64,000 nt of DNA from Armatimonadota bacterium (lineage in GTDB: Bacteria; Armatimonadota; Fimbriimonadia; Fimbriimonadales; Fimbriimonadaceae), in NCBI GenBank assembly GCA_018268355.1, contig JAFDWR010000004.1, positions 248,404 to 312,403 of the forward strand, given 5' to 3'. Shown here piece after piece: positions 27,491-34,838 of this stretch. The translations under genes and the position numbers were made by a program. The notes under the pieces were generated by a model. That model searched no databases and was not told where the DNA came from. It saw only the letters and a list, made by a program, of their open reading frames with translations. Position 1 is the stretch's first letter; every line of letters begins with the position of its first letter.

Positions 27491-27582
27491 GGAGAGATGG
27501 CTGAGTGGTCGAAAGCGCCCGCCTGCTAAGTGGGTAAGTGCCTTAAAGCGCTTCTCGGGTTCGAATCCCGATCTCTCCGCCA
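27491..27582 (+). tRNA. tRNA-Ser (anticodon GCU)
   Basis: GGAGAGA (27491-27497) pairs with TCTCTCC (27572-27578), followed by discriminator G and an encoded CCA. The anticodon loop CTGCTAA gives GCU. A long variable arm, typical of class II tRNAs, precedes the T arm with GGTTCGAATCC. Total length is 92 nt. Confidence 0.96.
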
Positions 27583-30550: not shown

Positions 30551-30683
30551 AAAAAGCAAAGAGCCTCTTCCGTTTTAGAAGAGGCTCTTCTTATTCCCCA
30601 GCCAGGCTAGGATTGACTCCGAAGAGTGCTAATTGGCGAAATCCAATTTTGTTGGAGCTCCGTCAACTCTGATCAGATACGTT
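30551..30683 (-). ncRNA. Candidate tracrRNA, divergent from cas9
   Basis: Read on the minus strand, 30680-30651 is an anti-repeat. Its first 14 nt (GTATCTGATCAGAG) are identical to repeat sequence. The last 11 (GGAGCUCCAAC) pair with GUUGGGGCUCC at the crRNA repeat start with one G-U wobble. Between them a 4-bp helix flanked by small bulges is possible. Downstream are a hairpin AATTGG/CCAATT (30631-30648) and a UUCG-capped ACTC/GAGT hairpin (30616-30627). The shared intrinsic terminator follows. This is the standard layout of a type II tracrRNA of about 130 nt. The 5' end is inferred; a TATTAT hexamer lies at 30693-30688. Confidence 0.85.
30559..30589. terminator. Bidirectional terminator shared by the PEP-CTERM gene and the tracrRNA
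   Basis: AAGAGCCTCTTC (30559-30570) forms a perfect 12-bp stem with 30578-30589. On the minus strand it is followed by TGCTTTTT (to 30551), a good termination tract for the tracrRNA. On the plus strand the tract is weaker (TCTTATT). Confidence 0.85.
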
Positions 30684-30686
30684 CTT

Positions 30687-30692
30687 TATAAT
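30687..30692 (+). promoter_or_regulatory. -10 element (TATAAT) of cas9, next to the tracrRNA 5' end
   Basis: A perfect TATAAT ends 8 nt before the cas9 ATG, predicting an almost leaderless mRNA. The region 17 bp upstream, where a -35 would lie, is inside the tracrRNA anti-repeat and has no TTGACA-like match. Confidence 0.65.
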
Positions 30693-30700
30693 ACACGCTT

Positions 30701-33700
30701 ATGGGGAAACTAGCGCTTGGAATTGATTTAGGATCGAATAATGTCGGTCACAGCCTGGTACTTCTGAATGAGGAAGAACTGGATATCGAAACCCTGGGCA
30801 CGTATGTCTTCTCGTCACCGATGGTAGACCCGAATGACCCCGAGGCAGGCTACAAGCAAGGCCAGTTTGGGTTGAAGCGGCGACAAATGAAGACGATTCG
30901 ACGCCGCGCCAAGCGAAAGCTCAAGTTCTATCGGCTCCTCATCTCCCTCGGCTTCCTCCCCGCCGATCGAAAGGAGCGCGAACGCATGCTCTGTCAAGGA
31001 AAGTCTGAGAACGGATCCTTTTCGCCCTACATCCTTCGCGCAGAAGCACTCGAACGCAAGTTGACTCCCGGCGAACTCGCGCGCGTTATCACGCACTTGA
31101 ATAATCACCGGGGATTTCTCAGCCCACGTGCCCAACGGTTTATCTCCGTTGATCCCGACATGGTTCGAGACTTGAGCTCGGACGATGAAGAGACCGGCGT
31201 CATGCTCGGTCAGATCAAAAGGACCCGCGAGATCATGGAGGCGGCGGGCTTCCGCACGCCTGGCCAACTCTTCGCCGCAAAGATCAAGCAAAACGAGCTT
31301 GTCCGACTCAAGACCAAGGTGAATCGGAAGGTTGGTGGCAAGAGGATGGACGAAAAGGTCCGCGCAGCCAAAAACGAGGCTCTCAAGAAGGAGATCAAGA
31401 ACCGGTCCTACCTTCGCCCCGACCGATTCATGGTCCGCGACGAGCTGCGCGCGATTCTCGAACTCCAGTCGAAGCACCACCCGATCCTCACTCCGGCCGT
31501 CCAAGACCAGATTGTCGATATCGTCTTCATGCAAAAGGACATCCGGGAAGACAAGGACCGACGAGGGTTCTGCACCTTCTTCCCCGATCAGAGGCGAATC
31601 TATCGCTGGTCGATGGCGGCGCAAAAGTTCGACATCGTTCAGCGATTATCGAATCTGGAAGTGGTTCCGCCCGCCGGGACCTCTCGCCGACTCACGCCTG
31701 AAGAGCTCGCCATCCTGACCACGCAACTCATGACCGGCGAGAACCTCAAGTGGGCGCGAGCGAAGGAACTTCTTGGCCTCTCGGCCGACCATCATTTCTC
31801 GCGCGAACCGCTCGACAAGAAGCAGAAAGGCACGCTCCAAGAGCTGCGGGGCAACCAGACCGCCGCTGTGATCAAAGACAGCATCGGTGAGAAGTGGGAC
31901 CTTCTCAATCCGGAAGCTCAGCTCGAACTCGTCAATGACCTCACTGCCAACGAGAATAAGCGCGGAGCGACGAGCAATCGCTACCAACTCCTGAAGTCGA
32001 AGACCTATGGCGTTGCAAGTGTTCGCTTCACCTCGGAGGAAGCGGCAAGACTCGCAACGCTTGAACTACCCAAAGGCACCCTTAGCCTCTCGCACAAGGC
32101 GATTCGAAAGATTCTCCCGGGCATGCTCGCCGGCTTGAACTATGCGGACGCATGTGCTCGAATTGGCCTGAATCACGCCGAAGGTAACCGCGCCGGAAAG
32201 GTCTCTCGCCTCACTCCCGACCTTGCGGATGGGATTCTCCATCCAGGCGTCAAATGCGCGGTGATCAACGCGTTCCGCGTGATCAATGCCTACCTCGATG
32301 AGTATCCAGAGCTGAAGGAAATCCACGTCGAACTCCCGCGTGAAATCGCCCGCTCGGCAAAGCAAGCGGCCGAAGAGGAGAGGCGTCAGAAGGACCGCGA
32401 GAACGAAAACAAGAAGATTCGGGCGAGGCTCCTCGAAGCGAAGCTCGCACCCACGGGCGTCAACTTCGACAAGGCCAAGCTTTGGGTCGAGACGGGCGGA
32501 TTCTTGCCCTACGATCCCGAACGCGGGCCGATCACCCTCGTCGAAGCGTGCTCGGCGGACTACGAGATCGACCACATCGTCCCCCGGGGCTATGAGCTCA
32601 TCGATGGATTCGAAAACAAGGTGCTTGCGTCGGTCCAAGACAACCGCGAGAAAGGAAAGCGAACGCCCTACGAGGAGTGGGGCCAATCGCCCCGCTGGCC
32701 GTTGATCGTTGCTGGCCTCAAGGCACTCAAAGGCATGTCGCTGCGAAAGAAGCAGCGGATTCAGAGCAGGGAGGTCCCCAAGGACTTTTCCGACCGCTTC
32801 CTGACCGCCACCGGCTATATCTCAAAGGAGATTCTCGGTGCGCTGAAACGGCTCGACCGAGACCTCGACATCACTGTCATGCCAGGTCGGTCAACCGCGT
32901 TCTTTCGGCGGCGATGGGGGCTCGACACCCTGATCCCGCTCCATCCGGAAGAGGAGGCCAAGCTGGAGAAGCGCAAGGCCTTGATCGCCGGAGGGGTCGA
33001 TCCGGGACCGATGCCAAAGTTCCGCTCGAACTACCTCCACCATGCCCTTGATGCGCTCGTGGTCGCGGTCACCAACCGCAGTCTGCTCCAGAAGCTGTCG
33101 AAGTACTACCAAGAAGAGGATGAGGCCCGGGCGGACAAGATTCACTTCCCGATCCCCGATCCCAACCTTCGTGAGAAGGTCAAGAAGGCCCTTGAAGGAG
33201 CGATGGTTGTTCACAAGCCGAACCGTAAGCTCACGGGTGCGCTCCACAAGGAGACGGCGGTTCGCCCCGTCGATAACATCGGCCCAGGAGAGCCCGCAAC
33301 TGTCAAACAAGTGGGAACGAAAATGGTGCGATTCGATCTGGATGGAAATCCTAGCCAAGCCTACGAACTGGGCAGCAACCACCATATTGCGATTTGGGAA
33401 GGACCCGACGGAAAACGCATGGCGGCCGTTCGGTCACTGTTTGCTGTTGCAACCAGGAAGAACAGAGGTCAACCGGCAGTGGACACGACCCCGCCTCGGC
33501 CAGGATTTCGGTTCGTGATGAGTTTGTGTGGTGGTGATACGGTTCAACTCAAGGATGGTCAACTGGCCGTTGTTGGGGCGCTTGAACGTGATGGTCGGGT
33601 TTCGCTTTGGAAGCCGATTAAGGCCCATGACGTTGGGAAAGAACGAAATACCGGCACGTACTGCATTTCCAGATCTACTTCGACGCAGAACATTGCCTAC

Positions 33701-33751
33701 CGCATCGTGCTGGACCCGCTTGGACGAGTCCTTAAGACCGAAGGAGAATGA
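30701..33751 (+). CDS. cas9: CRISPR-associated endonuclease Cas9 (type II, compact, II-C-like)
   Basis: Cas9 is an RNA-guided DNA endonuclease. The 1016-residue protein is in the size range of type II-C enzymes. RuvC-I is LGIDLGSNNVG with Asp9. An Arg-rich bridge helix follows (about 58-85). RuvC-II is EIHVELPREIA with Glu544. The HNH domain is YEIDHIVPRG with Asp624-His625 and the later Asn648. RuvC-III is HHALDALVVAV with His781 and Asp784. All expected catalytic residues are present. About 230 residues follow RuvC-III and should form the WED/PAM-interacting region. No cas1, cas2, cas4 or csn2 is in the window. tracrRNA lies divergently upstream and the array 61 bp downstream. Confidence 0.97.
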   Translation: MGKLALGIDLGSNNVGHSLVLLNEEELDIETLGTYVFSSPMVDPNDPEAGYKQGQFGLKRRQMKTIRRRAKRKLKFYRLLISLGFLPADRKERERMLCQGKSENGSFSPYILRAEALERKLTPGELARVITHLNNHRGFLSPRAQRFISVDPDMVRDLSSDDEETGVMLGQIKRTREIMEAAGFRTPGQLFAAKIKQNELVRLKTKVNRKVGGKRMDEKVRAAKNEALKKEIKNRSYLRPDRFMVRDELRAILELQSKHHPILTPAVQDQIVDIVFMQKDIREDKDRRGFCTFFPDQRRIYRWSMAAQKFDIVQRLSNLEVVPPAGTSRRLTPEELAILTTQLMTGENLKWARAKELLGLSADHHFSREPLDKKQKGTLQELRGNQTAAVIKDSIGEKWDLLNPEAQLELVNDLTANENKRGATSNRYQLLKSKTYGVASVRFTSEEAARLATLELPKGTLSLSHKAIRKILPGMLAGLNYADACARIGLNHAEGNRAGKVSRLTPDLADGILHPGVKCAVINAFRVINAYLDEYPELKEIHVELPREIARSAKQAAEEERRQKDRENENKKIRARLLEAKLAPTGVNFDKAKLWVETGGFLPYDPERGPITLVEACSADYEIDHIVPRGYELIDGFENKVLASVQDNREKGKRTPYEEWGQSPRWPLIVAGLKALKGMSLRKKQRIQSREVPKDFSDRFLTATGYISKEILGALKRLDRDLDITVMPGRSTAFFRRRWGLDTLIPLHPEEEAKLEKRKALIAGGVDPGPMPKFRSNYLHHALDALVVAVTNRSLLQKLSKYYQEEDEARADKIHFPIPDPNLREKVKKALEGAMVVHKPNRKLTGALHKETAVRPVDNIGPGEPATVKQVGTKMVRFDLDGNPSQAYELGSNHHIAIWEGPDGKRMAAVRSLFAVATRKNRGQPAVDTTPPRPGFRFVMSLCGGDTVQLKDGQLAVVGALERDGRVSLWKPIKAHDVGKERNTGTYCISRSTSTQNIAYRIVLDPLGRVLKTEGE

Positions 33752-33812
33752 AGCGATCCGTCATCCTCATTGGAGGCCCAACAGATGATCGTCGGGCAGT
33801 GGGGGAGTCCGA

Positions 33813-34838
33813 GCTGTATCTGATCAGAGGATGACCGGGAGCCCCAACCTAGGGTCAGGTTGGCGAACTCGGCGTAAAAGTGTATCTGATCAGAGGATGA
33901 CCGGGAGCCCCAACAGGGCGTCGGGCCTGGAGGCGTCTATCCGGAGTGTATCTGATCAGAGGATGACCGGGAGCCCCAACGCGCGTGCAGCATCAATCGG
34001 CGGCCTGGCAAGTGTATCTGATCAGAGGATGACCGGGAGCCCCAACAGCGTTCGCGGCGGTGGTCGAGCTCTTCGAAGTGTATCTGATCAGAGGATGACC
34101 GGGAGCCCCAACGGCAGGAAGAGCGAGCGGACGGTCGAATCGAGTGTATCTGATCAGAGGATGACCGGGAGCCCCAACTTTGGCTTTGCTGGGTCCCTAA
34201 ACAAGGTGAGTGTATCTGATCAGAGGATGACCGGGAGCCCCAACAGGCAATCGAAGCGGTCGAGCGGCTCCGAAAGTGTATCTGATCAGAGGATGACCGG
34301 GAGCCCCAACATCCACGAGAACGCGCTACGAGGGGGCATAAGTGTATCTGATCAGAGGATGACCGGGAGCCCCAACGTTTTGGGCCAAATGTGGTCTTGC
34401 GCTCAAAGTGTATCTGATCAGAGGATGACCGGGAGCCCCAACGGGCGGGCGAGCGAGCGCAAGCGAGACGAAAGTGTATCTGATCAGAGGATGACCGGGA
34501 GCCCCAACCCCGAAAACGTAAACTTCGTAAACTCCGTAAGTGTATCTGATCAGAGGATGACCGGGAGCCCCAACTGATGCCCTTCGTTGGCGAGTACGGG
34601 GCGTAGTGTATCTGATCAGAGGATGACCGGGAGCCCCAACGAGCTACGGCGATCCCACGGAAGCGGAGGAAGTGTAGCTGATCAGAGGATGACCGGGAGC
34701 CCCAACCTGTGGGCCGCTGTGGGAGCTATGGGCCGCAGTGTATCTGATCAGAGGATGACCGGGAGCCCCAACGGGAGGGGCAGGGAGGGGCATTCGAGCC
34801 ACAGTGTATCTGATCAGAGGATGACCGGCCGCCACCGG
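33813..34838 (-). CRISPR. CRISPR array: 16 repeats of 36 nt, 15 spacers of 30 nt
   Basis: Repeat starts are at 33813, 33879, 33945 and so on to 34803, an exact 66-nt period. On the plus strand the repeat begins AGTGTATCTGATCAG and ends GGGAGCCCCAAC. In crRNA sense (minus strand, set by tracrRNA pairing) it begins GTTGGGGCTCCC. The repeat at 33813 differs in its two first bases. The one at 34671 has one substitution (TAGC for TATC). The one at 34803 matches for only 26 nt before diverging. Spacers are all different. In crRNA sense each repeat ends GATACACT, which could hold an internal -10-like TACACT. No AT-rich leader is apparent at either end. Confidence 0.98.

What the first reader, a model, noticed from the sequence alone, without database searches (positions are those of the whole stretch)
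30551..34838. Minimal type II CRISPR locus: tracrRNA, Cas9 and array without any adaptation genes
Seen: intact 1016-residue Cas9 (Asp9, Glu544, His625, Asn648, His781 and Asp784 all present), a tracrRNA candidate and a regular 16-repeat array. Flanking genes are a PEP-CTERM protein and a DegT aminotransferase; no cas1, cas2, cas4 or csn2 is present. Known: II-C loci usually carry cas1-cas2. Inference: spacers are acquired with Cas1-Cas2 from another locus, or the array is static. A compact Cas9 with an untested PAM and this unusual layout is the best candidate here for an undescribed system.
Basis: partly seen in the sequence, partly recalled or inferred. Interest (0 to 1): 0.75.

Follow-up and report, generated by a model that had tools for sequence, protein, structure and literature searches.

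The report
CRISPR-Cas9 locus that lost cas1-cas2
This is an ordinary type II-C CRISPR-Cas9 immune locus, probably from a Fimbriimonadaceae-like bacterium, in which one deletion removed the genes that record new invaders, leaving a cutting enzyme with a frozen memory; it is not a new kind of system.

Summary
In detail: intact 1016-aa Cas9, a tracrRNA, a 16-repeat array, and no cas1 or cas2 nearby or anywhere in the 2.70 Mb, 97.7%-complete genome. Two corrections: tracrRNA and array are on the minus strand, and a 17th, truncated repeat plus a 16th spacer lie between cas9 and the array. The 'undescribed system' reading fails. The Cas9 sits in a 100/99-supported clade with three relatives that all carry cas9-cas1-cas2-array; 28 of 31 other Cas9-bearing genomes of the phylum have cas1 beside cas9, and the three exceptions are short contigs or a gene fragment. 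The window keeps a two-sided deletion scar: an ATGA start overlapping the cas9 stop and reading MKRSV, like the relatives' Cas1, followed by the last 11 nt of a repeat lying exactly one spacer before repeat 1. One deletion removed nearly all of cas1, all of cas2, the acquisition end of the array and part of at least one repeat. The rest probably still makes crRNAs and interferes but cannot acquire spacers. Cas1/cas2-less II-C loci are already described (CampyICE1, C. coli clade 3). Low interest.

The parts
30558..30687 (-). tracrRNA candidate: anti-repeat 30680-30651 followed by terminator hairpin 30590-30558
   Evidence: Anti-repeat alignment and same position and strand in six relatives; 14-pair terminator with T tail; predicted duplex with the repeat -49.9 kcal/mol. 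Ends are inferred.
30701..33751 (+). cas9, 1016 aa, type II-C clade, catalytic residues intact
33748..33771 (+). cas1 remnant: ATGA start overlapping the cas9 stop, MKRSV (to 33762); right edge uncertain
   Evidence: Same 4-nt overlap and [VLM][KR]RS[VI] start in the three nearest relatives; ranks 2nd of 4812 start codons in the window for residues 2-6
33772..33782 (-). truncated 17th repeat (GGAGGCCCAAC on +), the array-side edge of the deletion
   Evidence: 10 of 11 match, in register one spacer before repeat 1; the only + strand match outside the array in 64 kb; simulated chance about 3e-5
33783..33812 (-). 16th spacer (30 nt), newest surviving
33813..34838 (-). CRISPR array: 16 repeats of 36 nt, 15 spacers of 30 nt; crRNA-sense repeat GTTGGGGCTCCCGGTCATCCTCTGATCAGATACACT
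   Evidence: -10-like TACACT at the repeat end
34803..34838 (-). degenerate first-transcribed ('extra', oldest) repeat; keeps the -10-like part
   Evidence: typical of II-C per PMC12080349

Best explanation
A type II-C CRISPR-Cas9 locus of the usual plan (tracrRNA on the minus strand, then cas9-cas1-cas2, then an array transcribed back towards the cas genes) suffered one internal deletion. It ran from about codon 5-8 of cas1 into a repeat of the array and removed cas1, cas2, the cas2-side end of the array where II-C spacers are acquired, and at least part of one repeat. Shown: the scar on both sides, an intact cas9 frame, a pairing tracrRNA, near-identical repeats, RNase III in the genome. Inferred: repeat-embedded promoters make crRNAs, tracrRNA and RNase III mature them, and Cas9 cuts DNA matching the 15-16 stored spacers, but no new spacers can be added.
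For: No Cas1 or Cas2 in the genome. 28 of 31 other Cas9-bearing genomes of the phylum have cas1 beside cas9. The window Cas9 is nested with three cas1-bearing relatives at 100/99 that share period, repeat ends and tracrRNA layout. cas1 start remnant at 33748 with the same 4-nt overlap and the same first residues. Truncated repeat in register at 33772-33782. Intact catalytic residues, repeat:anti-repeat duplex -49.9 kcal/mol, RNase III.
Against: The cas1 remnant is only about 5 recognisable residues, and when residues 2-10 are scored it ranks 5th of 4812. No reads are available to exclude a misassembly. No crRNA expression or cleavage has been shown. No spacer target was found.
Confidence: 0.9

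Rival explanations
1. Assembly artefact or mixed population: the organism has cas1-cas2, and the assembly skipped them by joining cas1 to a repeat.
For: Arrays are repetitive and can mislead assemblers; the genome is in 7 contigs and 97.7% complete, and reads could not be examined.
Against: The left edge (cas1 start) shares no repeat with the array, so an ordinary repeat collapse would not join them. The locus lies inside a 613-kb contig. No stray cas1 or cas2 exists elsewhere.
Confidence: 0.06
2. An original minimal system that never had adaptation genes, a distinct undescribed variety.
For: The layout in this one genome.
Against: Nested inside a cas1-bearing clade; cas1-start remnant and truncated repeat present; no second genome with this layout found in the phylum or in genome contigs.
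Confidence: 0.02
3. Spacers are still added by Cas1-Cas2 acting from elsewhere, such as a plasmid missing from the assembly (as subtype VI-B borrows II-C Cas1-Cas2 in Flavobacterium, PMC8092290).
For: Repeats are near-identical, and borrowing of adaptation proteins is known (PMC8092290, abstract seen).
Against: No Cas1 or Cas2 in the genome, and the cas2-side end of the array, where II-C spacers enter, is itself cut off (PMC12080349).
Confidence: 0.03

Closest known systems
Type II-C loci of three Armatimonadota MAGs: Chthonomonas sp. UBA6659 (DKKT01000038), Chthonomonadaceae H1_ARM1 (CP054189), Fimbriimonadaceae SJ693 (JADZBW010000058)
   Same: Cas9 42-43% identical and in one clade; 36-nt repeat GTTGGGGC...CAGATACACT, 66-nt period, minus-strand tracrRNA upstream of cas9, array reading back towards cas9
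   Different: They carry cas1 (4-nt overlap with cas9) and cas2 between cas9 and the array; the window has only a remnant
CampyICE1 cas9-only type II-C system (PMC8743540)
   Same: Type II-C Cas9 with arrays and no cas1 or cas2; thought unable to acquire spacers
   Different: On a mobile element with three short scattered arrays; Cas9 of 965 aa from another lineage; here one array next to cas9 and a visible deletion scar
Campylobacter coli clade 3 cas9 without cas1/cas2 (PMC4607530)
   Same: cas9 without cas1 or cas2 in a lineage whose relatives have cas9-cas1-cas2
   Different: Different host and lineage; scar edges not compared here
Solved II-C Cas9 structures (for example 9ar4, 8jtj, 6kc8)
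   Same: Best sequence matches among solved structures, 158-178 bits; assignment of these entries to II-C orthologues is from my own knowledge
   Different: Remote similarity only; PAM-interacting end not aligned, so the PAM cannot be transferred

Membership tests
Type II-C CRISPR-Cas | Effector is a Cas9 that groups with II-C Cas9s (class 2 subtypes rest mainly on effector phylogeny, PMC12669027) | tested here: met
   Clade with three Cas9s at 100/99; Cas1 of two of these is subtype II/NMENI; best solved matches are II-C orthologues, with SpCas9 at 25 bits. Only one II-A and no II-B reference in the tree.
Type II-C CRISPR-Cas | No csn2 and no cas4 in the locus | tested here: met
   Neighbouring genes are a PEP-CTERM protein and a DegT aminotransferase; no further gene lies between cas9 and the array
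Type II-C CRISPR-Cas | tracrRNA with anti-repeat and terminator near cas9 | tested here: met
   (prediction; no expression data)
Type II-C CRISPR-Cas | Repeats ending in a -10-like promoter element, array read towards the cas genes, mutated extra repeat | tested here: met
   TACACT, 4 of 6 to TATAAT; extra repeat degenerate; PMC12080349. Promoter activity not tested.
Type II-C CRISPR-Cas | cas1 and cas2 in the operon (usual, but not what defines the subtype) | tested here: not met
   Only a cas1 start remnant; hence filed as a deletion derivative of II-C, not as a complete II-C system
Type II-D (Cas9d) | Cas9d effector | tested here: not met
   NF049971 112 bits against a cut-off of 375
CampyICE1-like mobile cas9-only system | Carried on an integrative or mobile element | not tested
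   Immediate neighbours show no mobility genes; element boundaries were not searched

The most novel reading that the evidence does not exclude
The frozen Cas9 array is kept by selection after losing adaptation because its fixed spacers now do something useful, such as lasting exclusion of one resident element or regulation of a host gene through partly matching spacers.
Probability: 0.06. Interest if true: 0.5.

Novelty: new member of a known kind. Interest (0 to 1): 0.2.

Why it matters
It is a clear case of loss of adaptation with both deletion edges still readable, and a caution against taking a missing cas1-cas2 as a sign of a new system. The Cas9 (1016 aa, 42-43% identical to its nearest relatives) is an uncharacterised compact orthologue with an unknown PAM; it would be one more orthologue, not a new mechanism.

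Tried and rejected
Spacer targets: no self-match in the window outside the array (best 7 mismatches). The whole-genome search gave only short hits at E 0.1 or worse apart from the array itself. Known phages gave only matches at E 0.3 or worse. Exact 24-mers of six spacers hit nothing in IMG/VR, so no PAM could be inferred; the other ten spacers were not searched there.

A single-sequence search of genome contigs and viral contigs found no relative; the alignment search found the three near relatives. Rfam gave no tracrRNA match, only a weak sub-threshold antisense-RNA hit on the terminator hairpin. A conserved motif downstream of the relatives' arrays first looked like a leader motif but is the reverse complement of the cas2 C-terminus. 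A weak Cas2-like hit at G000:C1:709776 overlaps an unrelated 397-aa frame. A consensus tracrRNA fold showed almost nothing conserved. The sigma-70 scan found no two-hexamer promoter, so promoter claims rest on the -10-like element alone.

Full report
WHAT IS THERE. The window holds a complete cas9 gene (30701-33751, +, 1016 aa). It matches the general Cas9 model strongly (TIGR01865, 443 bits, cut-off 100) and the Cas9d model far below its cut-off (112 against 375 bits). The array is 16 repeats of 36 nt with a strict 66-nt period (33813-34838). The repeat occurs nowhere else in the genome.

STRAND AND RNA PARTS. The anti-repeat lies at 30651-30680 and pairs when read on the minus strand; a 14-pair terminator follows at 30590-30558, also minus. 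The predicted repeat:anti-repeat duplex is -49.9 kcal/mol. So tracrRNA and array are both read on the minus strand, the array towards cas9. Six relatives examined have the same arrangement. The crRNA-sense repeat ends in TACACT, a -10-like element; relatives range up to a perfect TATAAT. Published II-C repeats carry their own promoters (PMC12080349). The first-transcribed ('extra') repeat at 34803-34838 is degenerate at its 5' end in crRNA sense but keeps the -10-like part. That is the common II-C pattern: about 60% of extra repeats are mutated, and new spacers enter at the other end (PMC12080349).

NO ADAPTATION GENES ANYWHERE. Pfam Cas1 and Cas2 find nothing in the 2.70 Mb, 7-contig, 97.7%-complete genome, while controls ring. 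A relative's own Cas1 finds nothing even at E 10. A relative's Cas2 gives one 15-bit hit overlapping an unrelated 397-aa frame.

RELATIVES HAVE THEM. Among 291 genomes of the phylum, 32 including this one have a Cas9 match. Of the other 31, 28 have cas1 next to cas9. The exceptions are G022 and G098 (contigs of 3.1 and 6.0 kb) and G164 (a fragment in a 205-aa frame). The nearest relatives, at 42-43% identity, are G165, G018 and G035. All three have cas9-cas1-cas2 and an array with the same 66-nt period and the same repeat ends. Their Cas1 is subtype II/NMENI in the two tested. A maximum-likelihood tree joins the window Cas9 to these three at 100/99, inside a wider clade at 100/100 whose complete loci carry cas1. 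The absence is therefore a derived loss.

THE SCAR. In all three relatives cas1 starts in a 4-nt overlap with the cas9 stop (xTGA) and begins [VLM][KR]RS[VI]. The window has ATGA at the same place (33748), reading MKRSV. Over 4812 start codons in the window this one ranks second for residues 2-6 and fifth for residues 2-10, and it is the only one at the predicted position. Soon after it, at 33772-33782, comes GGAGGCCCAAC, a 10-of-11 match to the repeat's end. It is exactly 30 nt (one spacer length) before repeat 1 and is the only such + strand match in 64 kb outside the array. A Markov simulation gives about 3e-5 for a match at this register. The simplest account is one deletion from about codon 5-8 of cas1 into a repeat, taking the rest of cas1, cas2, the stretch between cas2 and the array (which in several relatives starts with a strong hairpin), and at least part of one repeat. 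One extra spacer (33783-33812) survives between the scar and repeat 1.

HOW IT MOST LIKELY WORKS NOW. Shown by sequence: intact Cas9, pairing tracrRNA, 13 of 16 repeats identical to the consensus, RNase III in the genome. Inferred: crRNAs are made from promoters within repeats, matured with tracrRNA and RNase III, and guide Cas9 to cut matching DNA. Acquisition should be impossible, both because Cas1 and Cas2 are gone and because the acquisition-side end of the array has been cut away. The intact frame, conserved catalytic residues, near-identical repeats and only modestly long Cas9 branch (0.97 from the shared node, against 0.71-0.87 for the three relatives) fit a fairly recent loss, though this is not a formal test of selection. 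No target was found for the spacers searched, so neither PAM nor targets are known.

KNOWN OR NEW. Cas9-only II-C loci are described: CampyICE1 (PMC8743540) and C. coli clade 3 (PMC4607530). A Haemophilus strain lacking cas1-cas2 is also reported, subtype not clear from the passages read (PMC13016550). In annotated plasmid records seen here, Nitrobacter hamburgensis plasmid 1 and a Pontibacillus plasmid have cas9 without an annotated cas1 beside it. This locus is one more such case. It meets the effector, RNA and array features of II-C, lacks the usual (not subtype-defining) cas1-cas2, and is best called a deletion derivative of II-C.

LIMITS. No reads, no expression data, no second strain. 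Subtype placement uses one II-A and no II-B reference, and the Pasteurella row of the tree was a truncated frame. The right edge of the cas1 remnant cannot be fixed to the base.

Noticed in passing
L049, L050, L077, L051, L055, L057, L082, just 3' of the last repeat (crRNA sense): Several relatives have a strong hairpin directly after the last repeat, on the cas2 side (-12 to -25 kcal/mol in 34 nt): possibly an array terminator or part of the acquisition leader. The window lacks it.
   Followed up: partly
window 30701-33751: cas9 has lower third-position G+C (0.69) than neighbouring genes (0.79-0.85), which may mean the locus was acquired from another lineage.
   Followed up: no
L107 4956-8402 (Nitrobacter hamburgensis plasmid 1); L111 4004-7063 (Pontibacillus plasmid): cas9 genes without an annotated cas1 beside them; no short-spaced repeats found around the Nitrobacter one.
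   Followed up: partly
G164:C7:394152-394577 (same family): A Cas9 N-terminal fragment in a 205-aa frame in a genome without cas1, apparently a more decayed locus.
   Followed up: no
window 33748-33834: The cas1 remnant reads on as a 28-codon frame (MKRSVILIGGPTDDRRAVGESELYLIRG) ending inside repeat 1; probably meaningless.
   Followed up: no
window 27491-27582: tRNA-Ser (gct), about 3 kb upstream of the locus; a possible integration site.
   Followed up: no
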